Virus record (IMG/VR): IMGVR_UViG_3300009001_000002
Span: 1-61,190 of that record
Length of the DNA: 61,190 bases
Direction: 5' to 3' (one strand)
DNA from: a virus
The notes beneath the pieces were generated by a model. That model had not been told where the DNA came from and did no database searches. It was given only the letters and a program-made list of their open reading frames with translations. Shown piece by piece: positions 1 to 61,190 of this stretch. A program made the translations under genes and the position numbers. Positions within the stretch are counted from its first letter, which is position 1; each line of letters opens with the position of its first letter.

Positions 1-123
1 AAAGCAATTGAGTTAATGAGTGATAGTGAATTAAAAGATTATCGGGATAAGCAACTATTAGACTATGAGGACGTATTTTGGTCTAAAGAGGAATTAAAAA
101 ACTTTATAATAGATTTACTATGA
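1..123. repeat. Direct terminal repeat, left copy
   Basis: These 123 bases are identical to 61068-61190. They hold the last 40 codons and the stop codon of the glycosyltransferase gene that starts at 60150, plus the first bases of the kinase gene at 120. The overlap shows that the sequence is circular (or circularly permuted, or has a short true terminal repeat) and complete. A repeat this short is also what an assembler leaves when it closes a circle. Confidence 0.97.
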
Positions 124-671
124 ACGGAATATTAATTGTAGAAGGGCCAGATGGTGCTGGTAAGACTACATTAATAAATCAACTTAGAGAACACTGGTTA
201 TTTAAAACTCGCTATATGCATCTTCGAGTGCATAAAGAAATGGAAAAGTGGCATTGCGCTACTGCGAGAAGAGCCATTCGATTATCAAAAGATTATCTTG
301 TTATACTAGATCGACACTGGCCGAGTGAACAAATCTATTCTTATGAACGATCACCTGGTCCAAGCTACGACCCTACGAATATGGTTGATTGGCTAAAGAG
401 TCATGGAGCAATCTATATATGGGCTATACCAGAAGATTATGAAAGATTAATTGAAGAACATAAAACTAGAAGAGAAGAAAGACACGAAGAGTACCACGAT
501 ATATCTAAAGTTGTTAAAAGATATTACGATCACTGGTACGGTACTTATGAAGGACCAGATAATTATTTAAAGAAGATACAACCATTAAATAAAAGAGATG
601 ACTTCATACGATACGATCGGTTTACTGATAAAGATATTTTAGATAAAATAATAGATAGATTAAGACCATAG
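120..671 (+). CDS. Deoxynucleoside monophosphate kinase (thymidylate-kinase-like P-loop)
   Basis: The 183-residue protein starts with a beta strand and the Walker A loop GPDGAGKTT at residues 9-17, as in thymidylate and dNMP kinases. A DRH motif follows near residue 65 (VILDRHWPS), where dTMP kinases have DR and a substrate-binding region. Such enzymes phosphorylate dNMP to dNDP with ATP. The start codon overlaps the stop of the glycosyltransferase (60150-61190) across the circular join. The next gene is the thymidylate-synthase/dCMP-hydroxymethylase homologue. The role may be like T4 gp1, which phosphorylates hydroxymethyl-dCMP as well as ordinary dNMPs. Kinase assignment is firm; the exact substrate is inferred. 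Confidence 0.85.
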   Translation: MNGILIVEGPDGAGKTTLINQLREHWLFKTRYMHLRVHKEMEKWHCATARRAIRLSKDYLVILDRHWPSEQIYSYERSPGPSYDPTNMVDWLKSHGAIYIWAIPEDYERLIEEHKTRREERHEEYHDISKVVKRYYDHWYGTYEGPDNYLKKIQPLNKRDDFIRYDRFTDKDILDKIIDRLRP

Positions 672-684
672 AAAGGAAGAAAGA

Positions 685-1464
685 ATGCCTATGAATCATG
701 CTAATGAAGTTTATCGCAATCTAATTGATGAAGTAGAAGATAGAGGATTCGGAGCAAACCCTCGTGGTATGTTTACGAAAGAGATTATCGGACACACGAC
801 TAGATGCGATATGAGTTCACCTATCGTTACGATACCAGAAAGAGAACTTGGATATAAGTTCATGTTCGCTGAAGCACACTGGATATTATCAGGTGATAAT
901 CGAGTATCGACAATTAAACCTTACTCTAACGTTATTAAAAGATTTAGTGATGACGGAGTATTTTATTTCGGAGCCTACGGCCCTAAGATCGTAGATCAAT
1001 TACCTTATATCTGTAAAGCTTTAAGTGATGATATAGATACTCGTCAAGCTTGTATTAATATATGGAGAGAGAAACCACCGGTATCGAAAGACGTACCTTG
1101 CACGTTATCTTTACAGTTCTTAGTTCGCAGAGATACTTTATATGTTATTGCGAATATGAGAAGTAATGATATATGGCTCGGTTGGCCTTACGATAACTTT
1201 AACTTTAGTATGATTGGCTTATCTGTCTGTCTTTTAATGAAAGAAATTCATGGTAAAGATCTTAAATTAGGAATGCTTACTAATAATGCTGGTAGTAGAC
1301 ATCTTTATAAAGAGAACTTTGAAAAGGCTTTTAAAGTTGTGGATTCTGAAGAAATAGGAAAATCTTATCCTACTTTTAAACCTGAGAACTTTAACAGCTT
1401 CGAAGATTTAAAGTATCGTTTACACGCATGGAAAGATAATCCTGATGAATTTTTTACAGCATAG
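685..1464 (+). CDS. Thymidylate synthase family, predicted dCMP hydroxymethylase
   Basis: The 259-residue protein shows the catalytic cysteine in DVPCT (Cys139), the RSND motif (MRSNDIWLGWPYD) and a G-S-x-H-x-Y block (GSRHLY) near the C-terminus. The residue 31 positions after the cysteine is Asp170. In E. coli ThyA the same spacing leads from Cys146 to Asn177, which reads dUMP; in T4 dCMP hydroxymethylase it leads from Cys148 to Asp179. MRSND is also as in T4 gp42. The enzyme is thus predicted to make 5-hydroxymethyl-dCMP from dCMP and methylene-THF. A thymidylate synthase or dUMP hydroxymethylase with a divergent pocket is the alternative. The ribosome site is GAAAGGAAG (671-679), and the 3' end overlaps the dCMP deaminase gene by 20 bases. 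Confidence 0.8.
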   Translation: MPMNHANEVYRNLIDEVEDRGFGANPRGMFTKEIIGHTTRCDMSSPIVTIPERELGYKFMFAEAHWILSGDNRVSTIKPYSNVIKRFSDDGVFYFGAYGPKIVDQLPYICKALSDDIDTRQACINIWREKPPVSKDVPCTLSLQFLVRRDTLYVIANMRSNDIWLGWPYDNFNFSMIGLSVCLLMKEIHGKDLKLGMLTNNAGSRHLYKENFEKAFKVVDSEEIGKSYPTFKPENFNSFEDLKYRLHAWKDNPDEFFTA

Positions 1465-1906
1465 ACCTTCGAAAGATGAATACTTTATGGATATGGCACT
1501 TCTTGTGTCAGAGAGAAGTACGTGTCTTAGAAGAAAAGTTGGTGCTGTTTTAATTAATAAAAGAAAACATGTTCTTGCTACAGGGTATAATGGTGTGGCA
1601 TCAGGGCAACCTCATTGTTTAGATATACCATGCATTGGTGCTAACTCAGCATCAGGAACTGATTTAGATTTATGTGAAGCTGTTCATGCGGAACAGAACG
1701 CATTACTTCAGTGTAGAAATGTGTTTGAAATCGATACTTGCTACGTTACAGTATCTCCTTGCATGACGTGTACTAAGTTATTATTAAATACGAGTTGTCA
1801 GACTATTATCTTTGAAGAAGATTACGTTGATCAGAAAGCAAGACTATTATGGGAACGACACGATAGAAAGTGGGTAAGGATTGACGGATCTTTTCAAACC
1901 CACTAG
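1445..1906 (+). CDS. dCMP deaminase
   Basis: The zinc cytidine/deoxycytidylate deaminase fold is clear: HAE (in EAVHAEQNALLQC, catalytic Glu) and PCMTC (in TVSPCMTCTK) supply the zinc ligands, and the N-terminal SxRSTCxRRKVGAV block is typical of dCMP deaminases. At 153 residues it has normal length. It turns dCMP into dUMP, feeding thymidylate synthesis and lowering the dCMP pool. The start inside the preceding gene gives the usual N-terminus (RPSKDEYFM). If the upstream enzyme is a hydroxymethylase, the dUMP must be methylated by host ThyA/ThyX, since no other thymidylate synthase is seen here. Confidence 0.93.
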   Translation: MNFLQHRPSKDEYFMDMALLVSERSTCLRRKVGAVLINKRKHVLATGYNGVASGQPHCLDIPCIGANSASGTDLDLCEAVHAEQNALLQCRNVFEIDTCYVTVSPCMTCTKLLLNTSCQTIIFEEDYVDQKARLLWERHDRKWVRIDGSFQTH

Positions 1907-3743
1907 CAATTGGACACCTCCTACAGTACTTCCTGATCTCTCTCCCTCTAAAATAATCGGAGTTGATTTAGAAACATTCGACCCAGGCTTAAAGAAGTAT
2001 GGACCTGGAAGCATCAGAAAAGATGGTCAAGTTGCAGGAATCAGTGTAGCAGGAGATAATGGTAAAGGTTATTACCTTCCTATCGCACATCAAGATGGTG
2101 GCAATCTTCCTAAACCTTTAGTTATAAATTACTTAAAAGAATTACTTGCGACTGATACTCCGAAAGTATTTGCGAATGCTTTATACGATTTAGAATGGCT
2201 TCATAACTTAGGAATTAAAGTTAATGGTAAATGCTATGACGTTCAATTACTAGAACATCTTATAGATGAAAATCAGAAAGATTATTCATTACAAGCTTTA
2301 GGAAAAAAGTATGTCGGTGACGGTAAAGATGAAACTTTATTAACTGACGCTGTTCGAGCACACTTCGGAAAGAAAGATGTTAAGGGAAATATATGGCGCC
2401 TTCATAGTAGTTATGTAGGACCGTATGCGGAACAGGATGCGATACTTCCTGTAAAGATTATTAAGGAACAGTGGAAACAGATAAAGCAACAAGAACTAGA
2501 AAGAATTGTAAGATTAGAAACAAACTTAACTCCGATGCTTTTATCTATGAGAGTACAGGGAGTGAGTGTAGATTTAGATAACGCAGAGAAAGTATCGAAA
2601 AGATTAGAACTACAGGAACATGAAGCAAAAGATATTTTAAATAAGAAATCAGGGATTGACTGTAACGTATGGGCAAATGAAAGTTTAGGAAGAGCCTACG
2701 ATAATTGTAGTATTCCTTACGGTCGTACTCCTACAGGAAAGCCTAGCTTTACTCAAGTCTTTCTTGATCAAGCTGAAGATGAATTATCAAGCTTAGTATT
2801 AAAAGTCAGGAAACTAAATAAGCTACGCACGACATTTATTCATGGCATGATTTTAGAGAAACATGTAAACGGAAGAGTGCATTGTCAATTCAATGCGAGA
2901 GGAGCAGTAACAGGAAGATTTAGTTCAAGTAACCCGAATCTACAGCAAGTACCTGCTCGTGATGAAGAACTGTCTAAATTAATACGAGGCCTCTTTTTGC
3001 CAGAGCAAGATCAGAAATGGTACTGTATTGACTACGCACAACAAGAGCCGAGATTATTAGTTCACTTTGCGTCAAGATTAAAATTACCAGAAAGTATTAC
3101 TGCGTTATCAGCTTATAAGACTGATGAGAAAACTGACTTCCATACGATGGTCGCATCGATGGCAGGAATAAAAAGAAAGCAAGCTAAGACGATTAACTTA
3201 GGACTATTCTATGGTATGGGTAAAAAGAAATTAGCAAGTCAGTTAGGACTTGAATGGAATGAAGCAGAATCTTTATTTAAGAAATATCATACACGTGTTC
3301 CTTTCGTGAGAGGTCTATACGATAGAATGTTAAACTATGCAAGTAAGAGTGGTTACATAAAAACTTTACTCGGTCGCAAACGACACTTCGATCTATGGGA
3401 AGATGCTACTGACTTCGGAAGCATGGGTCATCCATTAGAACGAGCAAAAGAAATTTATAAAGGAAAACCGTTAAGACGTGCTTATACGCATAAAGCATTA
3501 AATTCTTTAATACAAGGAAGTGCTGCTGACGTAACGAAAGCGGCCATGCTAAAAGTCTATGAAGCAGGACTATTGACGCCTTTATTAACAGTTCATGATG
3601 AACTCGATTTCTCAATACCGCAAGATAGTAAGGGTTTCGAGCAGTTGAAAGAGATCGTGCATGAAATGAAGAACTGCGTTGACCTGGACCTACCTCTCCA
3701 GGTTGACGTAGAATCAGGGAAAGATTGGGGTAACATTGAGTGA
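1881..3743 (+). CDS. polA: DNA polymerase I (family A) with 3'-5' exonuclease domain
   Basis: The 620-residue protein has the exonuclease motifs DLET (Asp29, Glu31), NALYDLEW and YxxxD, then polymerase motif A DYAQQEPR (Asp384), motif B KTINLGLFYG and motif C VHDE (572-574). There is no N-terminal 5'-3' exonuclease. It is the replicative polymerase. The O-helix position equal to E. coli Phe762 is Leu440, the variant common in marine virioplankton. The start is TTG at 1881, overlapping the deaminase by 26 bases; AAGG ends just before it, so a slightly later start is possible. The stop overlaps the VRR-NUC gene. Confidence 0.96.
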   Translation: MTDLFKPTSNWTPPTVLPDLSPSKIIGVDLETFDPGLKKYGPGSIRKDGQVAGISVAGDNGKGYYLPIAHQDGGNLPKPLVINYLKELLATDTPKVFANALYDLEWLHNLGIKVNGKCYDVQLLEHLIDENQKDYSLQALGKKYVGDGKDETLLTDAVRAHFGKKDVKGNIWRLHSSYVGPYAEQDAILPVKIIKEQWKQIKQQELERIVRLETNLTPMLLSMRVQGVSVDLDNAEKVSKRLELQEHEAKDILNKKSGIDCNVWANESLGRAYDNCSIPYGRTPTGKPSFTQVFLDQAEDELSSLVLKVRKLNKLRTTFIHGMILEKHVNGRVHCQFNARGAVTGRFSSSNPNLQQVPARDEELSKLIRGLFLPEQDQKWYCIDYAQQEPRLLVHFASRLKLPESITALSAYKTDEKTDFHTMVASMAGIKRKQAKTINLGLFYGMGKKKLASQLGLEWNEAESLFKKYHTRVPFVRGLYDRMLNYASKSGYIKTLLGRKRHFDLWEDATDFGSMGHPLERAKEIYKGKPLRRAYTHKALNSLIQGSAADVTKAAMLKVYEAGLLTPLLTVHDELDFSIPQDSKGFEQLKEIVHEMKNCVDLDLPLQVDVESGKDWGNIE

Positions 3744-9080: not shown

Positions 9081-9143
9081 TAAACTTGTTTACTCAGGTT
9101 GTTTTTTATTTTATTATAAACTATATTAGAAAGGAGAAAGCAA

Positions 9144-30701: not shown

Positions 30702-30745
30702 ATTCTTTTATACTAACCCTAAAAACACCAAGGAGGTGAATTAAA

Positions 30746-31269: not shown

Positions 31270-31275
31270 GGCAGT

Positions 31276-33495
31276 ATGGCTAGCGAATTAAAAGTAAATA
31301 AGATTTCTCCCGAGTCAGGCACCACCCTGACTCTGGGTGATTCTGGAGATACGATTAATTTCGGTAGCGGCGTACTGCCTAACTTTGAAAACCTCACGGT
31401 CACGGGTGATCTGACCGTTGATACAAATTCTTTAAAAGTAGATTCTACCAATAATTTTGTCGGTATTGGTACTGCTTCACCAAGTGTCGCTTTGGATGTG
31501 GTCGGAGCCATTACCGCTACAGGTAATATCACAGGAACACTCGCAACAGCTTCTCAACCGAACATTACATCAGTAGGAACTTTAAGCAGTTTATCTGTTA
31601 GTGGAAATATCACAGGAACTTTAGCCACCGCAGCACAACCTAATATTACAAGTTTAGGAACACTCACAGGATTAACCACAACAGGGAATATTAATTTAGG
31701 TGATAGTGATCGATTACGATTAGGTGCCTCACAAGACTTACAAATTTTTCACGATGGATCACATTCTAATATTATAGATAATGGTTCTGGTAATTTAAGA
31801 CTGGGAGGAGACACTCAAATTTACTTAGGTAGATTTTCCGGGGACACTCCAAGTGAGGCATATGCAACATTTAATTCTAATGGTGCTGTTAATTTATATT
31901 ATGATAACGCAGTTAAACTATCCACCACATCTACAGGTATAGATGTTACAGGAACCGTGGTTAGTGATGGATTGACTGTTGATGGTAATGCTACTGTAAG
32001 TGGTAACTTAACCGTTGATACAAACACTTTTTTTATTGATAGCGTAAATAATATCGTAAGAATTGGGGATAATTCTAGTTACACTCCCAACACATCAGCA
32101 GATGATCTTATTGTTGGAACCACTACCTCTGGTTCAAAAACAGGTATAACTATTTTATCTTCAAATGATGTAGCATTTTCAAGAGGAAGTATTTATTTTG
32201 CTGATTCTGCCGCAGATTCTGTTGGCAGAATAGAATACAATCATGGCACTTCTGATACTGATGTAATGAAGTTTTTCACTAATACCACAGAAGCCATGCG
32301 TATAACCAGTGCTGGTCGTGTGGGTATTGGTACAACAAGTCCAACTAACGAATTAATGGTAGCTGGTGGAACAGACACCAGAATTACTATTGATGGTAGT
32401 TCTTCATCGGGTTTATATATAACCGATAGTGGTGCTAGTGGAGTTACTATTAGAAACACTAATGACGGTGATTTAGAGTTTTTAGGAGTAAGTGGAAAAT
32501 CATTTGTATTTAATCAAGCAAGTGTAAACACAGATTTTAGAATTGAAAGTGATGCAAATGCCAACATGTTTTTTGTTGATGCTAGTACTAATAGAGTTGG
32601 TATTGGTACAAATAGTCCTAGTTCTTTACTTGACCTTGTTTTTTCAAGTACAAATACCTCACCAACACCGGGTAATTCTACTTTAAGAATTAGACAAACA
32701 GCAAGCGGCACTAATGGATATTTTTCTGCCATAAATTTAAGCACAGCAACGGTTGGAGATAGTGCTGATTCTTTAATTGTCAATTATGGAATTACAAATG
32801 GACAAAGTGCTTTAGCCTTTTTTACAGATAATTTAAATACTTGTTCTGAAAGAATGAGAATAGATCAAAATGGTCGTGTCGGTATTGGTACAACGAGTCC
32901 TGAATCTACTTTGCATGTTCAAGGTTCTGAAATAAAAGCAAAAAATTCAACTAGTGCTTTTGTAACTATTGAAGCTGGTTCAGCAAGTTACCAATCAATA
33001 TTACAATTTTCTGATGGAGGTGCTTCAGGTGCATTAATTTATGATCACCCAAGTAATTACTTAGCAACTAAAGTCAATGGCTCAGAAGCTATGCGTATTA
33101 GTAATTCTGGCAATGTCGGTATTGGTATAACTTCACCCGGTGTTGCTTTAGATGTATCTGGTGCGATTAGAGCAACAGGTGATATTACAGCGTTTTATAC
33201 TTCCGATAGATCTTTAAAAACTAATATAGAAAATATTTCTGATCCTATAAATAAAGTAAAAGAATTAAACGGTGTTTCTTATAACTGGACTGAAGCTGCA
33301 CAGAAAAAATACAGTCATCTTAATGATCAAAAAGAAATTGGTGTCATTGCTCAAGATGTAGAAAAAGTTTTACCTGAAATGGTAGCACAAAGAGAAGATG
33401 GCACAAAAGCAGTTCGTTACGAAAGAATGTGTGCTTTATTAATTGAATGTGTAAAGGATTTACAAAATCAAATAGATGAATTAAAGGATAAATAA
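31276..33495 (+). CDS. Tail fibre 2 with S74 self-cleaving chaperone
   Basis: The 739-residue protein opens with the same attachment module as fibres 1 and 3 and shares the first 100 residues almost exactly with fibre 3, though the DNA differs at silent sites. The shaft repeats RVGIGTTSP and YDN-type units. The C-terminus is the S74 chaperone (SDRSLKTNI, Ser643; IGVIAQDVEKVLPEMV; RYERMCALLIECVKDLQNQI). The adhesive middle differs from fibres 1 and 3. Confidence 0.88.
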   Translation: MASELKVNKISPESGTTLTLGDSGDTINFGSGVLPNFENLTVTGDLTVDTNSLKVDSTNNFVGIGTASPSVALDVVGAITATGNITGTLATASQPNITSVGTLSSLSVSGNITGTLATAAQPNITSLGTLTGLTTTGNINLGDSDRLRLGASQDLQIFHDGSHSNIIDNGSGNLRLGGDTQIYLGRFSGDTPSEAYATFNSNGAVNLYYDNAVKLSTTSTGIDVTGTVVSDGLTVDGNATVSGNLTVDTNTFFIDSVNNIVRIGDNSSYTPNTSADDLIVGTTTSGSKTGITILSSNDVAFSRGSIYFADSAADSVGRIEYNHGTSDTDVMKFFTNTTEAMRITSAGRVGIGTTSPTNELMVAGGTDTRITIDGSSSSGLYITDSGASGVTIRNTNDGDLEFLGVSGKSFVFNQASVNTDFRIESDANANMFFVDASTNRVGIGTNSPSSLLDLVFSSTNTSPTPGNSTLRIRQTASGTNGYFSAINLSTATVGDSADSLIVNYGITNGQSALAFFTDNLNTCSERMRIDQNGRVGIGTTSPESTLHVQGSEIKAKNSTSAFVTIEAGSASYQSILQFSDGGASGALIYDHPSNYLATKVNGSEAMRISNSGNVGIGITSPGVALDVSGAIRATGDITAFYTSDRSLKTNIENISDPINKVKELNGVSYNWTEAAQKKYSHLNDQKEIGVIAQDVEKVLPEMVAQREDGTKAVRYERMCALLIECVKDLQNQIDELKDK

Positions 33496-34493
33496 TGCCT
33501 ACACCTACAGGTCAAATAAGTTTATCTGACGTCAATGTAGAACTAGGAAATAGTTCTACCGCTCAAATCAACATGGGATCTTCTGCTGTTAGAGGATTAG
33601 CAGATGTCGCTTCAGGCGCAATCACTATGAATAATCTAAGAGGTAAATCTTCTTGGTCAAATTATACAATTACTTACGTCATTATCGCAGGTGGTGCGGA
33701 AGGAGGTAATTGGGTTGGTGGTGGCGGTGGAGCAGGTGGTGTTGTAACAGGTTCAGGTTCTGCTTCAACCATGGGTGGTGCTTCTGCTCCTACTCAACTA
33801 ACAGTCACTGTTGGTGCTGGTGGTTCTAATGGTGCTATCGGTGGAGCAACGGGGGCTAATGGTTCCAACTCTTCTATAACAGGAGCAACTACTGCTCAAG
33901 GCGGTGGAGGTGGTGGTGCTAATGGAGGCAATGGTAACGGTGCTGACGGTGGTTCTGGCGGTGGCGGAGGTAAGTTTGGTAATGGTAGTGGAGGTAATAA
34001 TGCTTCTGGCCAAGGTAATATTGGAGGTTCTGGTAACAGTAGTCTTGACGGTTCTGAAGGTGGTGGAGGTGGTAAAGGCTCTGCTGGTGGAAATGCAGGT
34101 CAAAACGGTGGATCAGGTGGATCAGGCGCATCTATTACAATATCAGGAGTGAGTAAAGGTACAAAAGCCGGCGGTGGCGGAGGCTGTGCTCAAGCAAATC
34201 GAACTGGTGGTTCTGGTGGTTCTGGTGGTGGAGGTAACGGTAAAGCAGATGATGAAACTACTTTAGGTTCAAGTATTAATGGTGATACAAATACAGGTTC
34301 TGGTGGTGGAGGCGCAAGAAATAGAAAAGATGAAGGAGATAGAGGAATTCCGGGCACGGGTGGATCTGGTATTATTTATATTAGTGTTCCGACTTCAAAT
34401 TACTCAGGAACCACAACAGGGAACCCTTCCGTACAAACATCTGGATCCAATACTATTTTAACATTCACAGGTTCAGGGAGTTACACAACATAA
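33495..34493 (+). CDS. Glycine-rich adhesin-like tail protein
   Basis: The N-terminus (GQISLSDVNVELGNSSTAQI, VRGLADVASGAITMNNLRGK) is a known fibre attachment module. Residues 60-300 are mostly Gly/Ser/Asn blocks (GGGGAGGVVTGSGSAS-like), as in the polyglycine sandwich adhesins of T-even and marine phages. The C-terminal 30 residues form strands. A host-range determinant is likely. Confidence 0.75.
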   Translation: MPTPTGQISLSDVNVELGNSSTAQINMGSSAVRGLADVASGAITMNNLRGKSSWSNYTITYVIIAGGAEGGNWVGGGGGAGGVVTGSGSASTMGGASAPTQLTVTVGAGGSNGAIGGATGANGSNSSITGATTAQGGGGGGANGGNGNGADGGSGGGGGKFGNGSGGNNASGQGNIGGSGNSSLDGSEGGGGGKGSAGGNAGQNGGSGGSGASITISGVSKGTKAGGGGGCAQANRTGGSGGSGGGGNGKADDETTLGSSINGDTNTGSGGGGARNRKDEGDRGIPGTGGSGIIYISVPTSNYSGTTTGNPSVQTSGSNTILTFTGSGSYTT

Positions 34494-34855
34494 TGGCACA
34501 TTTCGTACAGTTAGATGAAAATAATAAAGTAATACAAGTAATCGTTGTTAATAATGATGTTATAGTCGATGGTGAAGGAAATGAACAAGAATCTTTAGGT
34601 ATTGCTTTTTGTCAGTCTTTATATGGCGATAATACAAATTGGAAACAAACGTCTTACAATGCTAGTTTTAGGGGTAAGATGGCAGGAATAGGTAGCACTT
34701 ACGATAGTGAAAATGATATTTTTATTCCACCTCAGCCCTTTCCTAGTTGGACTTTAAATGATATAAATATATGGATACCACCTGTTCCTTATCCTACAGA
34801 TGATACCGTTACGTATCTTTGGGACGAGGAAAACACACAGTGGGTTCAAGGTTAA
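34493..34855 (+). CDS. Tail-fibre-associated protein, 120 aa
   Basis: The pattern FVQLDENNKVIQVIVVNNDV, then WKQTSYNASFRGKMAGIGST, PPQPFPSWTLND and LWDEENTQWVQG recurs beside fibre genes in many marine phages. It is compact and beta-rich. It may be a tip or assembly protein. Function not established. Confidence 0.7.
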   Translation: MAHFVQLDENNKVIQVIVVNNDVIVDGEGNEQESLGIAFCQSLYGDNTNWKQTSYNASFRGKMAGIGSTYDSENDIFIPPQPFPSWTLNDINIWIPPVPYPTDDTVTYLWDEENTQWVQG

Positions 34856-34858
34856 AAA

Positions 34859-36700
34859 ATGAGTGAACTTAAAGTAGATAAAATAACCCCGAGACTCGGT
34901 ACTACCTTAACGTTAGGTGATGCAGGGGACACGATCAATTTTGGTAGTGGCGTTTTACCGAACTTCGAGAACTTAACGGTGACAGGAGATTTAACCGTTG
35001 ATACGAATAGTTTAAAAGTTGATAGCACGAATAACTTCGTGGGTATTGGCACGGCATCACCTAGCGTGGCCTTAGATGTCGTAGGAGCGATCACAGCCAC
35101 AGGAAATATTACAGGAACTTTAGCAACAGCTTCTCAGCCTAATATTACTTCGGTTGGCACACTGACTTCGGCTACAATATCAGGCGATCTAACAGTAGAT
35201 ACAAACACATTGTATGTGGATAGCACAAATAATCGTGTGGGTATTGGTACAACTAGTCCTCAATCTGGTTTAGATTTAACCTCATCTATAAAAGGTTCGT
35301 GGACATCGGGAAATGTATATTCTTATCCAACAGGTAATGCTTATATAAAAGTACAAGGCACTTCAAATGAACATAATTGGATTGGTATATCGGGGGTATA
35401 TGATGATAACTCAAGTTCTGCTAACTTATTACTTCAGGCAAATTTACGAAATACAAATGAACAAGCAGGAAATTATATAGGTTCTGAAGCACAAACATCT
35501 ACCTCAGCACATTTAACTTTTGGTAAATTGATTGGTGGTTCTGCTGTTGGAGTAAATGCCACAAAAACTGAAGCTATGCGTATAGATAATTCTGGTAATG
35601 TCGGTATTGGTACAACAAGTTTAGGTACTTATAAATTATCTGTTGATAGTGGAACAGCAGGAAATACAAATGCTGAAGCAGGCTTATATTTAAGTGGTAC
35701 TAGAGCAGGAGTTGTTTACAACATTGTTTCTAATACAGCAAATACAACTACAGATAAAGGTAGTGGTATTAAATTCCAAAATGGTGGATTTGATACAGGT
35801 GCAATAATTATTAGAAATGATGGTGCGTCTGTTTCTGGTGATTCAGCAGGATATATGACCTTTCATACATCAGATGACGGAACTGAAAATCTTTCAGAAC
35901 GTATGCGTATAGATAGTTCTGGTAACTGGATGGTAGGTAAGACGAGTGTTGACCTTGGTGTTACAGGAGTTGAATTTAGAGCAGGTTCTTACAATGCTAT
36001 GACTAATGATGGTGGTGTTCCTCTTTATTTGAATAGATTAACCTCGGATGGTGGTATTCTTGAATTTAGAAAAGATGATGCAACAGTAGGTAGTATCAAT
36101 GCTTCTGGTTCACGATTAGGAATAGGTAGTGGTAGTGTTGGTCTTTGGTTTGATAATACAAGTTATGGTGCTGTGCGACCTTTTAATGTATCTACAAACA
36201 GTGATAACGATAATGTAGTTGATTTAGGTTCTTCTGGTTCAAGATTTAAAAACGCATACTTATCCGGCAACGTCTATCTCGGTGGAACAGGAAGTGCCAA
36301 TGCCTTAGATGATTATGAGGAAGGTACATTTACTCCATTAGTAGAAGGTACTACTACATCAGGTTCAGCTACTTATACAACAAGAGTAGCAAAATATACT
36401 AAAGTAGGAAATATTGTACATTTTAATATATTTATTAGATGGCAATCAGGAACTGGTTCAGGTCCTTTTATAATAACAGGATTACCCTTTACTTCAGTAG
36501 GTTCTAGTTATCATAGTGCAGTCACTATCGGTTGGATGAATGATTACGATTACACGAATGGAAAAATTCCAAGAGCATACGTACCAAGTAGTATTAGTAG
36601 AATTAATTTTGAAGAATCTACCGACAATGGTGGTTCAACTAATTTAAATTATGATTCTCAAGCGGGATTAATTTTATCTGGAAGTTATGAAACAAGTTAA
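34859..36700 (+). CDS. Tail fibre 3, without S74 chaperone
   Basis: The 613-residue protein starts with the shared attachment module (MSELKVDKITPRLGTTLTLG), followed by VGIGTASPSVALDVVGAITA and TGNITGTLATASQPNITSVG, the same as in fibre 2. The C-terminus instead ends in a beta domain that begins LDDYEEGTFTPLVEGTTTSG, a known fibre tip fold. The S74 nucleophile and helices are absent, so trimer formation must work differently or depend on another protein. Confidence 0.82.
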   Translation: MSELKVDKITPRLGTTLTLGDAGDTINFGSGVLPNFENLTVTGDLTVDTNSLKVDSTNNFVGIGTASPSVALDVVGAITATGNITGTLATASQPNITSVGTLTSATISGDLTVDTNTLYVDSTNNRVGIGTTSPQSGLDLTSSIKGSWTSGNVYSYPTGNAYIKVQGTSNEHNWIGISGVYDDNSSSANLLLQANLRNTNEQAGNYIGSEAQTSTSAHLTFGKLIGGSAVGVNATKTEAMRIDNSGNVGIGTTSLGTYKLSVDSGTAGNTNAEAGLYLSGTRAGVVYNIVSNTANTTTDKGSGIKFQNGGFDTGAIIIRNDGASVSGDSAGYMTFHTSDDGTENLSERMRIDSSGNWMVGKTSVDLGVTGVEFRAGSYNAMTNDGGVPLYLNRLTSDGGILEFRKDDATVGSINASGSRLGIGSGSVGLWFDNTSYGAVRPFNVSTNSDNDNVVDLGSSGSRFKNAYLSGNVYLGGTGSANALDDYEEGTFTPLVEGTTTSGSATYTTRVAKYTKVGNIVHFNIFIRWQSGTGSGPFIITGLPFTSVGSSYHSAVTIGWMNDYDYTNGKIPRAYVPSSISRINFEESTDNGGSTNLNYDSQAGLILSGSYETS

Positions 36701-55450: not shown

Positions 55451-56233
55451 TTGTATTTATTTTTCGACACCGAAACAAACGGCTTGTGGCGCCGTGATCT
55501 AGAAGCTACTGATCCAAATCAACCACATTTAGTACAAATAGCTGCACAGTTAGTAGATGAAGATGAAAAAGTTGTTAACCAATATTCGATGCTCATTCGA
55601 CCAGAAGGTTGGAGTATTCCTAAAGATGCTGAAGATGTTCATGGCATCTCCAATGAGAAGGCATCTACTTATGGTGTACCTTTGGTTAGTGCCCTCTCTG
55701 TGTTTAATTCTATGGCAGCTTCAGCGCATACAATTGTCGCTCATAACTTAGCTTTTGACTTGCAAATAATTGCAAGAGATTTTCATTATTTAAAGAAACC
55801 TTTTCGACAACCAAAAGACTTGCATTGTACTATGATGAGTACGAAAGATATTCTAAAATTAGAAAGTGATTTTGATGATTATAAATTTCCTAAGTTAATT
55901 GAAACGTATGAACACTTTTTTAATGTAGGATATTTCGATTGGCACGATGCTTTAGCTGACGTTCAAGTATGTCGAATTATTTATTTTCATTTAAAGAATC
56001 AAGGAATTGAGTTAAAAGCACCACGACAGCTTCCTAAAAAGCTGTTAAAAGTAATGAATAATGACGATTATGAAGAATTAATCGGTTTAATTTCATCTAT
56101 AAATAGAGATAATATAAGCGATTGGGAGAGTAATTTTCTCAAAGATCAAGAAGAAAGAATAGAGAAATACAAAGAGAAAGTTATGATCTCCGATAAACAA
56201 ATGAACATTATAAGGAGAATGGCAGAAAAATGA
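55451..56233 (+). CDS. DnaQ-type 3'-5' exonuclease
   Basis: The DEDDh motifs are all present: FFDTETNG (Asp6, Glu8), VAHNLAFDLQ and HDALADVQV. The first 200 residues are this exonuclease and the rest a helical tail. It may proofread or trim replication and recombination intermediates. TTG at 55451 is the start; AAAGGA lies at 55434-55439. It overlaps the next gene by 4 bases. Confidence 0.9.
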   Translation: MYLFFDTETNGLWRRDLEATDPNQPHLVQIAAQLVDEDEKVVNQYSMLIRPEGWSIPKDAEDVHGISNEKASTYGVPLVSALSVFNSMAASAHTIVAHNLAFDLQIIARDFHYLKKPFRQPKDLHCTMMSTKDILKLESDFDDYKFPKLIETYEHFFNVGYFDWHDALADVQVCRIIYFHLKNQGIELKAPRQLPKKLLKVMNNDDYEELIGLISSINRDNISDWESNFLKDQEERIEKYKEKVMISDKQMNIIRRMAEK

Positions 56234-57186
56234 AACGCATCGTTGTAACCGGAGCAACAGGATTTCTAGGAAGAAATCTATGTGAGAAGTTATTAGAACA
56301 AGGACATCAAGTTATTGGTGTTGATAATCATTTAACAGGGAGTGAATCTAATATTTTAGATGAGGATAATTATAGTTTTTATGAAGCTGATATCGTTAAA
56401 GACGATCTATCAATGCTTCTTCGAGAACATAATAAAAAAGGAATACACTATATCTATAACTTAGCTTGTCCAGCATCGCCTGATCATTATAAAACTCATG
56501 CATTTCAAACTTTAGAAGTTTGCTTTAATGGAATGAAGAATATGATTCAGTATGCGTTAGAACAAGGAAATGTTCGTATGCTTCATACTTCTACAAGTGA
56601 AGTATATGGAGATCCTGAAGTAGATGATCAGAAAGAAACGTATTGGGGAAATGTAAATTCTTTTGGACCTCGTGCTTGTTATGATGAAGGTAAAAGAGTT
56701 GCGGAAGCTTTAATCTATGAATCAATAAATAAATTAAAATCGAATATAGGAATCGCAAGAATCTTTAATACTTACGGTCCTTATATGGCGATTAATGATG
56801 GTAGAGTAATATCGAATTTTATTACTCAAGGTTTACAGGGTAACCATCTTATCATATACGGCGGAGGTTTTCAATCTAGATCTTTTTGTTATGTTGATGA
56901 TACAATAGAAGGTTTAATTCGAATCTGTGAAAGTGATTATAAAGAAATATTTAACGTAGGAAATCCTGATCGTCATGCTATCGTAGAGATAGCAGAAGTA
57001 ATTGCTGAAAAGACTGACGCACCTGGTTGGAAGAACGATGCTCCTTCACCAGATGATCCTATGCATCGAAAGCCTAATATAGATAAGATTCAACACTATC
57101 TAGGTTGGACTCCTCAAGTAAAATTAAATCAAGGATTAGACGACACGATAGAATATTTTAAATATGCTCTCAAAAGACAAAACTAA
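56230..57186 (+). CDS. UDP-glucuronate decarboxylase (UDP-xylose synthase)
   Basis: The 318-residue short-chain dehydrogenase has the NAD motif GATGFLGRNL, the family signature LACPASPDHY, STSEVYGDPEV, YWGNVNSFGPRACYDEGKRV with catalytic Tyr and Lys, RIFNTYGPYM, GRVISNFI and SRSFCYVDD. These follow UXS enzymes closely, which turn UDP-glucuronate to UDP-xylose. It is not a simple epimerase. It would supply a pentose donor to the phage's glycosyltransferases. Host UDP-glucuronate is needed. Confidence 0.85.
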   Translation: MKRIVVTGATGFLGRNLCEKLLEQGHQVIGVDNHLTGSESNILDEDNYSFYEADIVKDDLSMLLREHNKKGIHYIYNLACPASPDHYKTHAFQTLEVCFNGMKNMIQYALEQGNVRMLHTSTSEVYGDPEVDDQKETYWGNVNSFGPRACYDEGKRVAEALIYESINKLKSNIGIARIFNTYGPYMAINDGRVISNFITQGLQGNHLIIYGGGFQSRSFCYVDDTIEGLIRICESDYKEIFNVGNPDRHAIVEIAEVIAEKTDAPGWKNDAPSPDDPMHRKPNIDKIQHYLGWTPQVKLNQGLDDTIEYFKYALKRQN

Positions 57187-58678
57187 AATAATTCTAGGTC
57201 CACCAGGTACGGGTAAAACCACTACATTATTAAATATCTTAGAAGAAGAAATAGAAAGTGGTATAGCACCAGAACGTATTGGCTTCGTATCATTTACACG
57301 CAGAGCGATTAAAGAAGCGAGAGATAGAACACTAGAAAAGTTTAAAGAGATTGATAAAGATCAATTAGACTACTTTAGAACACTTCATAGTTTATGTTTT
57401 AGATCTCTCGGTCTTAATAGTGAAAGAATATTTAAAGGTCTACACGTCACGGAATTTAAAAAGATACTTCGAATCGATATGACAGGCGATGTTGATGAAG
57501 AACAGATCGTTAATAACGGAGCAAGTTTAGGAGATCGCATGTTATTTTGCGATCAGTTAGCTAGGGCAAAGATGTGCCCACTAAAAGATACATGGAGAGA
57601 ATTAAAATGTGATTATTCGTGGGAAGAACAGAAACTATTTTCTGATACTCTCGTTGATTTTAAATTAAAAAGAAATCTTCTTGACTTTACTGATATGTTA
57701 AGTTCATTTCTCGAATCGGAATACACTCCTGATATTGATATTTTATTTGTTGATGAAGCACAAGACTTAACGAAGCTACAGTGGAAAGTAATTGATAAAC
57801 TATCTCATTCCGTTAAGACTATTTATATTGCAGGAGATGACGATCAAGCGATCTATAAATGGGCAGGTGCTGATGTAGATACGTTTCTTAGTCTTGATGG
57901 TGAGATTAGAATACTGCCATTTACTTATCGATTAAAAAAGCGTGTCTTTGATTTAGCGAATCAAGTAACAAAAAGAATTATAAATAGATACGATAAAGAT
58001 TGGTCTAGTTCAGAGGAACAGGGATCAGTAAACTACATTGAATCGTATGAGTATGCTGATATGTCAGAAGGAAGTTGGCTTATCTTAGCTAGAAATAACT
58101 ATCAGTTATATCCGATTGAAAAGTATTTAAAGCAGAAAGGATACATGTTTGAGAGAAAGTTTGGTGGATTCAAAGCTAATAAGTATGTTGTAGCAATTAG
58201 AACTTGGTTAGATTTAATCGAAGGAAAAGAAGTGCCTTACGATTCAATTATGAAGCTTTATAGCTGTATGAGAACAGGAGAAGGAATTACTCGAGGATTT
58301 AAAAACGGAAACAGTTTAGATAAGGAAAAAACATATACTTATAAAGAACTAAAAGATACTCACGGACTTATCGCAGAGGGTAAATGGGAAGAAGCTTTAA
58401 CTTTAATTCCTGATGACGATAAATATTATTATCAAGCTTTAGAAAAGACAGGTGATTTATTTTATAGCGAACCGAGAATACGATTAAGCACAATACATGG
58501 AAGTAAAGGTGCTGAAGCTGAAAATGTAATGTTACTCACTGATGTATCTTATGCTACATGGAAGAACATAAATGATCAATCTGATGATGAACATCGTGTT
58601 TTTTATGTAGGAATTACGAGAGCAAAGAATAATCTATTCATAGTGAATCCACAAGGATTGTATAGTTATCCTATATAA
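57164..58678 (+). CDS. UvrD/Dda-type superfamily 1 helicase
   Basis: The 504-residue protein has GPPGTGKTTT, SFTRRAIKEARDR, TLHSLCFRSL, ILFVDEAQDLTKLQW, IAGDDDQAIYKWAGAD, RLSTIHGSKGAEAENVMLLT and FYVGITRAKNNLFIV: the SF1A motifs in order. It is a 3'-5' helicase in phage replication or repair. It overlaps UXS by 23 bases. Confidence 0.93.
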   Translation: MLSKDKTKIILGPPGTGKTTTLLNILEEEIESGIAPERIGFVSFTRRAIKEARDRTLEKFKEIDKDQLDYFRTLHSLCFRSLGLNSERIFKGLHVTEFKKILRIDMTGDVDEEQIVNNGASLGDRMLFCDQLARAKMCPLKDTWRELKCDYSWEEQKLFSDTLVDFKLKRNLLDFTDMLSSFLESEYTPDIDILFVDEAQDLTKLQWKVIDKLSHSVKTIYIAGDDDQAIYKWAGADVDTFLSLDGEIRILPFTYRLKKRVFDLANQVTKRIINRYDKDWSSSEEQGSVNYIESYEYADMSEGSWLILARNNYQLYPIEKYLKQKGYMFERKFGGFKANKYVVAIRTWLDLIEGKEVPYDSIMKLYSCMRTGEGITRGFKNGNSLDKEKTYTYKELKDTHGLIAEGKWEEALTLIPDDDKYYYQALEKTGDLFYSEPRIRLSTIHGSKGAEAENVMLLTDVSYATWKNINDQSDDEHRVFYVGITRAKNNLFIVNPQGLYSYPI

Positions 58679-58687
58679 TAAAAATCT

Positions 58688-58718
58688 TTGTTTTAAATGA
58701 AAAATAAATTAATATTAT
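58688..58718 (+). promoter_or_regulatory. Candidate promoter before the methyltransferase
   Basis: TTGTTT (58688-58693) and TATTAT (58713-58718) are 19 bases apart. AGAAAGGAGC follows before the ATG at 58742. This would start the modification operon that runs across the circular join to at least 4137. Confidence 0.5.
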
Positions 58719-58741
58719 TTAAGTTAGAAAGGAGCACTTAA

Positions 58742-59791
58742 ATGAACGCAATTGGAAGCCACATTTTTGCTGGTGGTTTTACTCTCGGAGTAGAAAAGCA
58801 CTTCAATGTACTGGCACACTTTGAAGGTGATGGTGCCTACGGCGCTGACACATTCGCTTTAAATAGACCGAATATACCAGTTTTTTCTGGACCTTCTAAC
58901 TGGCCGGTTAAGGACTTCGAAGGTAAAGTAGATTTCGTTTACGGCAATCCTCCGTGTGCTCCTTGGTCAACACTAGGAACGGGCGGTCGCAAAGATTTAG
59001 ACTGGCGAGATGATCCTCGCATTGAAGCATGGTCTCATGTCTTTTCCCTTTTACACGATCTACAACCTAAAGCTTTAGCGATTGAGTCCGTTCCGAGAGT
59101 ATTCGCAAAAACAGGTGGAAGGCCAATGATTGAAAGTTTTACAGAAAAAGCAATACAAGCTGGCTATAATGTTACTCATTTTTTAGTTGATGGTCAGTAC
59201 ACGAATTTAAATCATAGTAGAAGAAGATTCTTTTTCTTAGCACATAAAGGAGGCCTATCTTTTCCACGATTGAATTGGAACCCTGCTCCAACTATCGCAG
59301 AAGTTTTAGCAGAAGTACCAGATCCTGGGCACATGAATAGTTTTACTAAAACAGAAGAAGAATTAGTTTCTCAGTGCGGTCAAGGAGAACAGTTAAGAAC
59401 GGTGTGGGAAAAATTAAATCCACCAGAAACTTGGCAACGATCTGAAAAAGGAAGAAGAGGTGTTAAAGGTAGACCTCAATTTATGAAATGGAGATTAAGA
59501 GATAATAAACCTGCGGGTGTTATTGCAGGAGGGTTTTATATTCACCCTACGGAAGATAGATTATTAGGCCATAAAGAATTGGCTCACTTCTCTGGTTATC
59601 CGCAAGATTATAAATGGGCCGGTCCTCCGTCTGGTTGGGGATCATTAATCGCACGATCAGTAATGCCACCTGTCGGTGAGTTCGTTGCGAGAGTAGTAAA
59701 AAATTCAATTGCTTCAGGTGAGCAAGCGAAAGAAGATGTACAGCTAGTGGATTATACAAAGCCACCTGCTATGGAGGATTTATTTGCATGA
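58742..59791 (+). CDS. DNA cytosine-5 methyltransferase
   Basis: The 349-residue protein has motif I (IFAGGFTLGVEKHF), motif IV GNPPCAPWS (Cys72), motif VI IESVPR, motif VIII (NLNHSRRRFFFLA) and motif X GWGSLIARSVMPPVG. All catalytic parts of a C5-MTase are present. The target site cannot be read. In the proposed hydroxymethylcytosine pathway it would have few free targets; it may modify early DNA, use host DNA, or have a changed activity. The stop overlaps the mazG start by 4 bases. Confidence 0.88.
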   Translation: MNAIGSHIFAGGFTLGVEKHFNVLAHFEGDGAYGADTFALNRPNIPVFSGPSNWPVKDFEGKVDFVYGNPPCAPWSTLGTGGRKDLDWRDDPRIEAWSHVFSLLHDLQPKALAIESVPRVFAKTGGRPMIESFTEKAIQAGYNVTHFLVDGQYTNLNHSRRRFFFLAHKGGLSFPRLNWNPAPTIAEVLAEVPDPGHMNSFTKTEEELVSQCGQGEQLRTVWEKLNPPETWQRSEKGRRGVKGRPQFMKWRLRDNKPAGVIAGGFYIHPTEDRLLGHKELAHFSGYPQDYKWAGPPSGWGSLIARSVMPPVGEFVARVVKNSIASGEQAKEDVQLVDYTKPPAMEDLFA

Positions 59792-60165
59792 GCCAATATA
59801 AAGATATTGATGCTTTTCATAAAAAGTTTAAATTTAATCAAGGTAAAGGAATTAAGTCAATGGATTATAGTTTTGGAAATTGGCGTGTTGACTTTCTTAT
59901 GGAAGAAATTGCTGAACTAACTGATGCTTTAGATAATAAAGATGACGTAGAAATACTAGATGCTTTAGTTGATATCTGCTACGTAGCTATGGGAACAGCG
60001 TGGTTAATGGGTTTACCATTTGAAAAAGCTTGGAAAGAAGTACAGAGATCTAATATGGAAAAGATTAGACAAGCAAGTGAACGATCTGAATTTGACGTAG
60101 TTAAACCTGAAGGTTGGAAGAAACCTGATATACGAGGAATTATTAAGAAATGGCAAAAGTCTTAA
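59788..60165 (+). CDS. mazG: MazG-like nucleotide pyrophosphohydrolase
   Basis: The all-alpha NTP-PPase motif EEIAE followed by EILDALVD lies in residues 37-60, and the end has EVQRSNMEKIR and VVKPEGWKKPDI, as in phage MazG. It hydrolyses (d)NTPs to monophosphates. Next to a dCMP-hydroxymethylase homologue it may play the role of T4 gp56, removing dCTP and making dCMP; phage MazG may also act on (p)ppGpp or other dNTPs. It overlaps the glycosyltransferase gene by 16 bases. Confidence 0.85.
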   Translation: MSQYKDIDAFHKKFKFNQGKGIKSMDYSFGNWRVDFLMEEIAELTDALDNKDDVEILDALVDICYVAMGTAWLMGLPFEKAWKEVQRSNMEKIRQASERSEFDVVKPEGWKKPDIRGIIKKWQKS

Positions 60166-61190
60166 TTACAGGATTCACTGCTAAAGGAATTGGTAGTGGT
60201 GATAATAAATTAAATATCGCAACAAGTGCGAATCTACTTCCGAAAGCACTAAAACTAGCAGGACACGAAGTAGTTCAAAAACCCATTATACCAGGTGATG
60301 ATGTATCGGAATACGATCATGTATTCGTCTTTATGTTTCCACCTAATAGTTTACCAAGTGCTTATACTTATGGTGCGATGTACACTTTAGCTAAAAGACC
60401 GGATGCTATCTGTGCTCTTGATGATTGGCAAACAAAAGACGTTCCTTCTGGTTTCGCTACGTTTGCAAGAGAAGGCCATTGGCGTTTATGGAAAACGCAA
60501 ACAAAGTCTGGTGCTCCTATGAAGAAGCGATACTATGATCAAGCACTTGACTATAAGCAAGAACTAAACGACCTATGCACTACAATGGGATTTGAAGAAT
60601 GGCCTTACAAATGTCTTGCACCAGTGTATAGAACTGGTAATATTGAAGCATTAGGTATAAAAGCGAAAGAATTGATTTCATGGGATCCGACTCCTATTTG
60701 CGATTCCTACATGGAAACGCCTACAGATCTATTTAGTATTGATCAGCAGGTTGACGTGAAAACTAAGGAAAAGAAATGGGTCTATGCTTCTCTTATTCAA
60801 AAGCCAGGTTGGTTAGAAAAAACACATGGTGAATGGGAAGTACAAGCTTATGGTAATAAAAATTTAGGACAGGAAAGAATTAGTGAACATGAATTATATA
60901 AAGTGTATCAGAAATCATGGGGAGTATTAGTACCACCTCATTATCATACTTTAAGAAAGAGTGGTTGGTGGAGAGTACGATACGGCATGATTAGAGATGC
61001 TCAATGCGTTACTGTAGGAGATTCTACGGAACTATCAATCTTCTTTGAAGATAGGGTTAAGTCTAGAAAAGCAATTGAGTTAATGAGTGATAGTGAATTA
61101 AAAGATTATCGGGATAAGCAACTATTAGACTATGAGGACGTATTTTGGTCTAAAGAGGAATTAAAAAACTTTATAATAGATTTACTATGA
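60150..61190 (+). CDS. GT-B glycosyltransferase, candidate DNA glycosyltransferase
   Basis: The 346-residue protein looks like two Rossmann halves: VLITGFTAKGIGSGDNKLN opens the first; KEKKWVYASLIQ, WEVQAYGNKNLG, WGVLVPP, WWRVRYGMIRDAQCVTVGDS and a long helical end make the second. The order (YASL, YGN, R-V, DA-x-x-V, then a C-terminal helix) resembles T4 beta-glucosyltransferase (GSF, FGN, RVWE, DAV). The identity is weak and read by eye. Kinase and hydroxymethylase genes follow across the join, which suggests 5-hmC in DNA as the acceptor. Confidence 0.6.
   Translation: MAKVLITGFTAKGIGSGDNKLNIATSANLLPKALKLAGHEVVQKPIIPGDDVSEYDHVFVFMFPPNSLPSAYTYGAMYTLAKRPDAICALDDWQTKDVPSGFATFAREGHWRLWKTQTKSGAPMKKRYYDQALDYKQELNDLCTTMGFEEWPYKCLAPVYRTGNIEALGIKAKELISWDPTPICDSYMETPTDLFSIDQQVDVKTKEKKWVYASLIQKPGWLEKTHGEWEVQAYGNKNLGQERISEHELYKVYQKSWGVLVPPHYHTLRKSGWWRVRYGMIRDAQCVTVGDSTELSIFFEDRVKSRKAIELMSDSELKDYRDKQLLDYEDVFWSKEELKNFIIDLL
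61068..61190. repeat. Direct terminal repeat, right copy
   Basis: Identical over 123 bases to 1-123; it forms the 3' end of the glycosyltransferase gene. Joining the two copies restores one continuous operon from 58742 to about 4137. Confidence 0.97.

What the first reader, a model, noticed from the sequence alone, without database searches (positions are those of the whole stretch)
56230..61190. Possible complete pathway for glycosylated 5-hydroxymethylcytosine, split by the circular join
In order around the circle: UDP-xylose synthase (56230), C5-MTase (58742), MazG (59788), GT-B transferase (60150), dNMP kinase (120), hydroxymethylase-like enzyme (685), dCMP deaminase (1445), DNA polymerase (1881). 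In T4 the equivalent steps are a dCTPase, dCMP hydroxymethylase, gp1 kinase, polymerase and glucosyltransferases. Most of the genes here overlap, which suggests one operon from 58742. The combination would protect DNA from host nucleases. A pathway of this type in a podovirus-like marine phage, with a pentose donor gene, appears little described.
Basis: inference. Interest (0 to 1): 0.82.

Follow-up and report, generated by a model that had tools for sequence, protein, structure and literature searches.

The report
Phage pathway for sugar-coated cytosine DNA
This uncultured podovirus-like phage carries a compact gene cassette that should make a modified cytosine (5-hydroxymethylcytosine), build it into its DNA and cap it with a sugar, most likely a pentose; relatives swap the sugar-supply gene, which suggests that phages can change the sugar coat used to hide DNA from host defences.

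Summary
All eight named genes are present at the stated coordinates, and the join is real: the record has a perfect 123-bp terminal repeat, and other contigs carry the same gene order uninterrupted.

The TS-like enzyme has the dCMP-type residues (Asp at E. coli 177, Thr at 147, both as in T4 gp42). Its neighbours are a PRA-PH/MazG pyrophosphohydrolase, a thymidylate-kinase-like kinase and a dCMP deaminase. The transferase has no Pfam family and is not alignable to T4 alpha-GT, T4 beta-GT or RB69 ORF003c, but its model looks GT-B-like. In 15 of 15 phage records examined, its family occurs with a TS-family gene or (one record) a TET/JBP gene. Elsewhere its neighbours are UDP-galactopyranose mutase or an RB69-type UDP-arabinose module.

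New here: a sister clade keeps the cassette but lacks UXS and carries a UDP-glucose-dehydrogenase-type gene instead. Two unrelated phages also combine UXS with a dCMP-type hydroxymethylase. Cultured relatives lack the cassette.

Best reading: pentosylated (xylosyl, possibly arabinosyl) hmC, made post-replicatively. The sugar is inferred, and the role of the conserved C5-methyltransferase is unexplained. New variant of a known kind.

The parts
1..123 (.). terminal direct repeat, copy 1 (contains the 3' end of the transferase gene and the start of the kinase gene)
   Evidence: identical to 61068-61190
61068..61190 (.). terminal direct repeat, copy 2
55451..56233 (+). DnaQ-like 3'-5' exonuclease, first gene of the overlapping string
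   Evidence: PF00929 E 1.5e-13, phrog_192 E 5e-37
56230..57186 (+). UDP-glucuronate decarboxylase / UDP-xylose synthase (UXS); predicted donor-sugar enzyme
   Evidence: PDB UXS1 4gll/2b69 E about 2e-79 over 315 residues; present in the 13 other contigs of its own clades whose sequence covers this slot, absent in the sister clade
57164..58678 (+). UvrD-like helicase, core replication gene also present in relatives without the cassette
   Evidence: PF00580 E 1.5e-31; homologues in HTVC023P-type phages
58742..59791 (+). C5-cytosine DNA methyltransferase, divergent; role in the pathway unknown
   Evidence: PF00145 E 9e-23; catalytic C72, E115, R160, R162 invariant in 15 homologues, ENV motif is ESV; best phage-record matches only about 23-26% identity
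59788..60165 (+). PRA-PH/MazG-type nucleotide pyrophosphohydrolase; predicted dCTP-to-dCMP enzyme (specificity inferred)
   Evidence: PF01503 E 2e-14, phrog_671 E 4e-31
60150..61190 (+). predicted 5hmC glycosyltransferase, GT-B-like fold, family without Pfam model
   Evidence: AlphaFold2 pLDDT 82.6, pTM 0.81; Foldseek GT-B hits including T4 alpha-GT; family occurs with a hydroxymethylase or TET gene in 15 of 15 records examined
120..671 (+). thymidylate-kinase-like deoxynucleoside monophosphate kinase; predicted hm-dCMP kinase (substrate inferred)
   Evidence: phrog_761 E 1e-10, P-loop EGPDGAGKTT
685..1464 (+). dCMP hydroxymethylase-type thymidylate-synthase homologue
   Evidence: PF00303 E 1.6e-19; best PDB hit CMP 5-hydroxymethylase MilA; C139, T140 and D170 align with T4 gp42 Cys, Thr, Asp and with E. 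coli C146, H147, N177
1445..1906 (+). dCMP deaminase
   Evidence: PF00383 E 2.7e-21, phrog_174 E 9e-41
1881..3743 (+). family A DNA polymerase
   Evidence: PF00476 E 5e-70

Best explanation
A phage-encoded pathway that replaces cytosine (wholly or in part) by a glycosylated 5-hydroxymethylcytosine. Proposed steps: (1) the PRA-PH/MazG protein hydrolyses dCTP to dCMP, and the deaminase diverts part of the dCMP to dUMP/dTMP; (2) the TS-family enzyme turns dCMP into 5-hydroxymethyl-dCMP; (3) the kinase starts its conversion to the triphosphate, the host completing it; (4) PolA builds it into DNA; (5) the GT-B-like transferase adds a sugar to the hydroxymethyl group in DNA; (6) the sugar donor is a UDP-pentose made from host UDP-glucuronate by the phage UXS: UDP-xylose, or UDP-arabinose if a host 4-epimerase follows. 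The coat should block host restriction enzymes and other DNA-targeting defences. Shown by sequence: presence, family, key residues, order and conservation of the genes. Inferred: substrates of the MazG protein, kinase and transferase, the sugar, and the extent of modification.
For: Cytosine-type active site: D170/T140 as in T4 gp42; D and T at these places in all 77 loci whose homologue could be read at both (overlapping loci from fewer contigs); 147 and 177 are the two positions that best separate modified from unmodified contigs in MetaGPA, and TS, PRA-PH and dCMP-deaminase domains co-occur there in modified contigs (PMC8670742). Transferase-hmC link: the transferase family occurs in 15 of 15 records with a TS-family gene, or in C48C1 with a TET/JBP gene whose reading frame overlaps the transferase; cultured relatives HTVC023P and HTVC027P and the record genomes 023Pt_psg01 and DSL-LC04 lack both. 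Sugar-donor link: family members lie next to UDP-galactopyranose mutase (FBB1, DSL-LC01, C48C1; a weaker match in 60AhydR15PP), and in PSTRCR_121 inside an RB69-type UDP-arabinose module whose usual candidate transferase ORF003c is missing. UXS-pathway link: UXS sits in the overlapping gene string in all window-clade contigs covering the slot; two unrelated phages combine UXS with a dCMP-type hydroxymethylase: L110 UXS-UGM-kinase-ORF-epimerase-HMase, L107 Ugd-UXS-GalE-GT-kinase-deaminase-HMase. Fold: GT-B-like.
Against: No chemistry: no modified base has been measured in this phage or in any phage with this transferase family, as far as I found. Asp177 also occurs in dCMP methylases (5mC), so hydroxymethylation rather than methylation rests partly on the presence of a transferase. 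Foldseek gave no PDB hit at E <= 0.001, so GT-B rests on many weak consistent hits. UXS needs UDP-glucuronate and the phage has no UDP-glucose dehydrogenase. A C5-methyltransferase is not expected to be useful if all C is hmC.
Confidence: 0.72

Rival explanations
1. hmC is made and glycosylated, but with an ordinary hexose (host UDP-glucose), and UXS is an unrelated auxiliary gene, for example for host surface polysaccharide.
For: T4 alpha- and beta-GT use host UDP-glucose (established knowledge). UXS homologues are also found in 12 other phage loci without a detected hydroxymethylase nearby.
Against: UXS overlaps its neighbours in the replication/modification string; it is exchanged for a UDP-glucose-dehydrogenase-type gene in the sister clade; two unrelated phages pair UXS with a dCMP-type hydroxymethylase; the transferase family elsewhere lies next to sugar-nucleotide enzymes.
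Confidence: 0.15
2. The cassette makes plain hmC or 5mC, and the transferase acts on something else (a protein or the host surface).
For: Some phages carry the hydroxymethylase and kinase without this transferase (HTVC200P, L025, AXL_3), so the first half can stand alone.
Against: The transferase is fused by overlaps to MazG and kinase genes in three clades, and its family co-occurs with an hmC- or TET-type gene in 15 of 15 records.
Confidence: 0.08
3. A mixed modification (compatible with the best explanation): replacement of C by hmC is incomplete, and the C5-methyltransferase methylates remaining cytosines in a defined motif while the rest carry sugar-hmC.
For: C5-methylase present with all its catalytic residues in all three clades and also with the same transferase family in GodonK, GMA2, DSL-LC01 and the Manatee Spring phage; absent in L025, which keeps the hydroxymethylase but has no transferase.
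Against: Absent in the T4-like and C48C1 members of the transferase family, so it is not required for the transferase; no direct data on residual cytosine.
Confidence: 0.35
4. A TET-like route: the C5-methyltransferase makes 5mC in DNA, which is oxidised to hmC and then glycosylated.
For: C48C1 has TET/JBP directly before the same kind of transferase.
Against: No TET/JBP domain in the window or in five relatives searched whole, while a dCMP hydroxymethylase is present.
Confidence: 0.03

Closest known systems
T4 hmC pathway (gp42 hydroxymethylase, gp56 dCTPase, gp1 kinase, dCMP deaminase, alpha-/beta-glucosyltransferase)
   Same: Same logic and the same diagnostic residues in the hydroxymethylase (Asp at 177, Thr at 147)
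   Different: Unrelated kind of transferase by sequence, a different MazG-type pyrophosphatase and kinase, family A polymerase, extra UXS and C5-methyltransferase, all in one overlapping string
RB69 arabinosyl-hmC (PMC6024577)
   Same: Pentose on hmC via a UDP-pentose; the same transferase family as here sits inside an RB69-type UDP-arabinose module in Providencia phage PSTRCR_121
   Different: RB69 uses ORF003c, absent here, and a proposed isomerase/NTP-transferase route to UDP-arabinose; here the donor comes by decarboxylation of UDP-glucuronate
Shewanella phage Thanatos deoxypentosyl-cytosine (PMC12838424)
   Same: Pentose-type sugar on cytosine and a phage enzyme that yields UDP-xylose in vitro
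   Different: TH1_063 is a pyrophosphorylase acting on xylose-1-phosphate, not a UXS; the Thanatos paper reports the sugar bound directly to cytosine, without a hydroxymethyl bridge
MetaGPA cytosine-modification clusters with 5hmC carbamoyltransferase (PMC8670742)
   Same: TS with Asp177, PRA-PH and dCMP deaminase domains co-occurring
   Different: Final step there is carbamoylation; here a glycosyltransferase with a sugar-nucleotide gene
HTVC023P-type pelagiphage thymidine hypermodification (PMC9599517)
   Same: Modification genes near PolA in related podoviruses
   Different: That pathway acts on thymidine (TS plus aG/PT-PPlase); the cytosine route here is not reported there, and the relatives tested lack it

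Membership tests
T4-type hmC pathway | dCMP-type hydroxymethylase with catalytic Cys and Asp at E. coli position 177 | tested here: met
   C139 and D170
T4-type hmC pathway | enzyme removing dCTP | tested here: inconclusive
   PRA-PH/MazG superfamily; substrate not known
T4-type hmC pathway | kinase for hm-dCMP | tested here: inconclusive
   thymidylate-kinase-like fold only
T4-type hmC pathway | transferase homologous to T4 alpha-GT or beta-GT | tested here: not met
   hhalign probability 0.9 and 5.3%; profile finds nothing in T4; fold comparison shows only general GT-B resemblance to alpha-GT
T4-type hmC pathway | hmC in virion DNA | not testable with these tools
   needs LC-MS
RB69 ara-hmC system | ORF003c-type arabinosyltransferase | tested here: not met
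   no match in the window; hhalign probability 0.1%
RB69 ara-hmC system | isomerase plus NTP-transferase UDP-arabinose module | not tested
   no direct search made in the window; none seen among annotated ORFs
UDP-glucuronate decarboxylase (UXS) | full-length match to UXS1 with SDR catalytic motif | tested here: met
   E about 2e-79 over residues 2-316; STSEVYGDP and YDEGKR segments kept
C5-cytosine DNA methyltransferase | motif IV PC, motif VI ENV, motif VIII arginines | tested here: met
   C72, E115, R160 and R162 invariant; Asn of ENV replaced by Ser
GT-B glycosyltransferase | two-Rossmann-domain fold | tested here: inconclusive
   confident model; many GT-B hits with probability 0.9-0.99 but none at E <= 0.001 in PDB
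TET/JBP route to hmC | TET/JBP dioxygenase | tested here: not met
   PF12851 absent from the window and five relatives

The most novel reading that the evidence does not exclude
The transferase defines an hmC glycosyltransferase family whose sugar is set by an exchangeable donor gene: xylose (xylosyl-hmC) in the window's clades through UXS, and glucuronic acid, a charged sugar not known on cytosine as far as I found, in the sister clade, where UXS is missing and a UDP-glucose-dehydrogenase-type gene (often with an NAD synthase gene) follows PolA.
Probability: 0.28. Interest if true: 0.78.

Novelty: new variant of a known kind. Interest (0 to 1): 0.62.

Why it matters
If true, it adds a transferase family with no curated model to the few known DNA glycosyltransferases, and shows that podovirus-like phages related to marine pelagiphages, not only T4-like phages, can coat cytosine with sugars other than glucose. 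The exchange of UXS for a UDP-glucose-dehydrogenase-type gene in otherwise syntenic genomes gives a natural experiment on how phages change the sugar. It makes testable predictions for enzymes, restriction resistance and modified-base detection, and offers a candidate new enzyme for labelling 5hmC. The recurrent C5-methyltransferase beside hmC genes is an open question that could be tested directly.

Tried and rejected
A TET-based route was rejected for this phage. Homology of the transferase to T4 alpha-GT, T4 beta-GT or RB69 ORF003c by sequence was rejected. The idea that the terminal repeat hides a false join was rejected because other contigs are uninterrupted. A second transferase scan with the alignment gave no new family branches in viral contigs, only the same clades, probably because the back-translated patterns are too specific; the C5-methyltransferase scan was what revealed the sister clade. 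Fixed differences between UXS-clade and Ugd-clade transferases were listed (12 positions) but could not be mapped on the donor site. The promoter/terminator scan was uninformative (18 promoter-like sites against 22.3 expected). Ugd as a GDP-mannose dehydrogenase is not excluded: the best single PDB hit is GDP-mannose 6-dehydrogenase, closely followed by UDP-glucose dehydrogenases, and NCBIfam favours UDP-glucose types below cut-off. Host assignment was not attempted. The UXS/Ugd exclusion is probably one evolutionary switch, so contig counts are not independent evidence.
Full report
What was checked. The window is a 61,190-base virus record in IMG/VR. Its first 123 bases repeat its last 123 exactly, so the record closes into a circle. 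The transferase gene ends at 61190, equal to base 123, and its stop overlaps the ATG of the kinase at 120 by 4 bases. The same junction is found inside uninterrupted contigs (for example L004, L007, L008), so the order across the join is real.

The genes. Pfam and PHROGs give: exonuclease 55451; UXS-type SDR 56230; UvrD helicase 57164; C5 DNA methylase 58742; PRA-PH/MazG 59788; a protein without Pfam family 60150; thymidylate-kinase-like kinase 120; thymidylate-synthase family 685; dCMP deaminase 1445; PolA 1881. The SDR is specifically UXS-like: human UDP-glucuronate decarboxylase scores 270 bits (E about 2e-79), the next class about 100 bits. Neighbours overlap from 55451 to 3743 except for a 63-base gap before the C5-methyltransferase and a 13-base gap before the hydroxymethylase gene. 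The promoter scan found nothing above expectation, so the operon is inferred from overlaps only.

Which base. The TS-family enzyme has its best solved relative in the CMP 5-hydroxymethylase MilA. Aligned with E. coli ThyA and T4 gp42 it has the catalytic Cys (C139), Thr where E. coli has His147 and T4 has Thr, and Asp (D170) where E. coli has Asn177 and T4 has Asp. In MetaGPA these two positions best separate TS proteins of modified from unmodified contigs, with Asp177 typical of modified cytosine; PRA-PH and dCMP-deaminase domains co-occur with TS in modified contigs (PMC8670742). All 77 loci with a homologue readable at both positions have Asp and Thr; these loci overlap and come from fewer contigs. 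Asp177 says cytosine rather than uracil; it does not by itself separate hydroxymethylation from methylation.

The transferase. With 29 sequences in the alignment AlphaFold2 gives pLDDT 82.6 and pTM 0.81. Against PDB the best hits are mostly GT-B enzymes (SnogD, SenB, BH4 glucosyltransferase, T4 alpha-GT with probability 0.84-0.96), none at E <= 0.001; against viral models its five best matches, phage or uncultured-virus proteins, have TM about 0.64-0.87. It does not align by profile to T4 alpha-GT, beta-GT or RB69 ORF003c. In annotated phages the family occurs in Aeromonas, Erwinia and Providencia/Morganella T4-like phages, several Gordonia phages, DSL-LC01, C48C1 and a Manatee Spring phage. 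I checked 15 records with it, six of them the window and its relatives: 14 have a TS-family gene. The C48C1 record has none, but has a TET/JBP domain in the gene overlapping the transferase's start. The hydroxymethylase-type residues were read directly for DSL-LC01, the Manatee Spring phage and GodonK; Forza's TS gene was not readable by my pattern. T4-like phages generally carry a hydroxymethylase, so those members are weaker evidence than the unrelated lineages.

Sugar-nucleotide neighbours. The transferase lies next to UDP-galactopyranose mutase in FBB1, DSL-LC01 and C48C1, and next to a weaker match in 60AhydR15PP. In Providencia phage PSTRCR_121 it lies between a SIS-domain isomerase and an NTP-transferase protein, in the layout of the RB69 module proposed to make UDP-arabinose; PSTRCR_121 lacks RB69's candidate arabinosyltransferase ORF003c, and RB69 lacks this family. 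So the family is repeatedly linked to non-glucose sugar donors.

The donor exchange. Searching IMG/VR with the C5-methyltransferase found a third clade (L060-L095, L097 and L100 apart from the UXS-clade loci L092 and L096) with exonuclease, UvrD, C5MT, MazG, transferase, kinase, hydroxymethylase, deaminase and PolA in the same order, at mostly 43-62% identity, but without UXS. In 33 such contigs the exonuclease-UvrD space is mostly -8 to -26 bases, up to 553, against 919-931 in the UXS clades. Instead, all 23 contigs that reach past PolA carry a nucleotide-sugar dehydrogenase of the UDP-glucose/GDP-mannose type (PF03721/PF00984/PF03720, TIGR03026), most with an NAD synthase next to it. Whole-record searches confirm the exclusion: the dehydrogenase is absent from the window and two UXS-clade records and present in five sister-clade records; UXS is the converse, apart from a 28% SDR match in G003. 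The two enzymes are consecutive steps from UDP-glucose via UDP-glucuronate to UDP-xylose (established knowledge). Either the sister clade uses glucuronate, or each clade supplies the step its host lacks. The split probably reflects one switch.

Independent UXS-hmC links. Among 14 other UXS loci, L110 has UXS, UDP-galactopyranose mutase, kinase, an ORF of unknown family, a 4-epimerase-like SDR and a dCMP-type hydroxymethylase in a row; L107, in a 504-kb record, has UDP-glucose dehydrogenase, UXS, a GalE-like epimerase and a group-1 glycosyltransferase, then a kinase, dCMP deaminase and dCMP-type hydroxymethylase within about 10 kb. They look like longer versions of the same UDP-pentose supply line.

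Where the cassette sits. The nearest terminase relatives are 023Pt_psg01, HTVC027P, HTVC023P and DSL-LC04. They have primase, helicase and PolA but no TS-family gene and no such transferase, so the cassette lies between helicase and PolA of an otherwise shared replication region. Related HTVC023P-type genomes are reported to carry thymidine hypermodification genes near PolA (PMC9599517).

What remains open. No modified base was measured. The sugar is inferred from gene content; MazG and kinase substrates are inferred from family. The C5-methyltransferase keeps its catalytic residues, accompanies the transferase in all three clades and in GodonK, GMA2, DSL-LC01 and the Manatee Spring phage, yet has no obvious substrate in fully hmC DNA; incomplete replacement with motif methylation is my preferred but weakly supported reading.

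Verdict. The new elements are the transferase family, its genomic tie to hmC and to varied donor genes, and the donor-gene exchange between sister clades. It is a new variant of a known kind.

Noticed in passing
L061:17468-18244 and the same place in most sister-clade contigs: A phage NAD synthase gene (PF02540) follows the nucleotide-sugar dehydrogenase; it could refill NAD used by the dehydrogenase or lost to NAD-depleting defence. L082 and L090 lack it.
   Followed up: partly
L025:7752-10747 and L040 (phage AXL_3) 9653-12795: MazG, kinase and dCMP-type hydroxymethylase without the glycosyltransferase, with a class I methyltransferase (PF13489 in L025; AXL_3's is 27% alike) upstream; perhaps another decoration of hmC.
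   Followed up: partly
L037 (HTVC200P) 8354-9172: Annotated thymidylate synthase of a cultured Pelagibacter phage has the dCMP-hydroxymethylase residues (PCT, Asp at 177); a ready isolate for testing hmC. HTVC119P has a close homologue.
   Followed up: partly
L110:9989-15576: UXS, UDP-galactopyranose mutase, kinase, unknown ORF, 4-epimerase-like SDR and hydroxymethylase in a row; looks like a complete route to an arabinofuranosyl donor.
   Followed up: partly
L107:18131-19087: dCMP deaminase gene interrupted by an intein (PF14890) in a 504-kb phage record, next to a hydroxymethylase.
   Followed up: no
L010:3972-5025: C5-methyltransferase is split into two reading frames in this contig while the neighbouring cassette genes are intact; a sequencing error or a natural loss.
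   Followed up: no
L018, L020: dCMP deaminase missing between hydroxymethylase and PolA in these contigs, so it is dispensable.
   Followed up: no
685-1464: The hydroxymethylase often varies more among close relatives than its neighbours (73-93% against 87-98% for PolA).
   Followed up: no
9871-10401: Pyrimidine-dimer DNA glycosylase-like protein (PF03013), a DenV-like repair gene.
   Followed up: no
28983-36700: Three tail-fibre-like genes share a 207-nt 5' repeat (about 70-72% alike) and nine copies of a 64-nt repeat, suggesting duplicated fibre modules.
   Followed up: no
14535-15185: Protein of phrog_3704 (E 1e-93, labelled ferredoxin) without any Pfam match; the label is doubtful.
   Followed up: no
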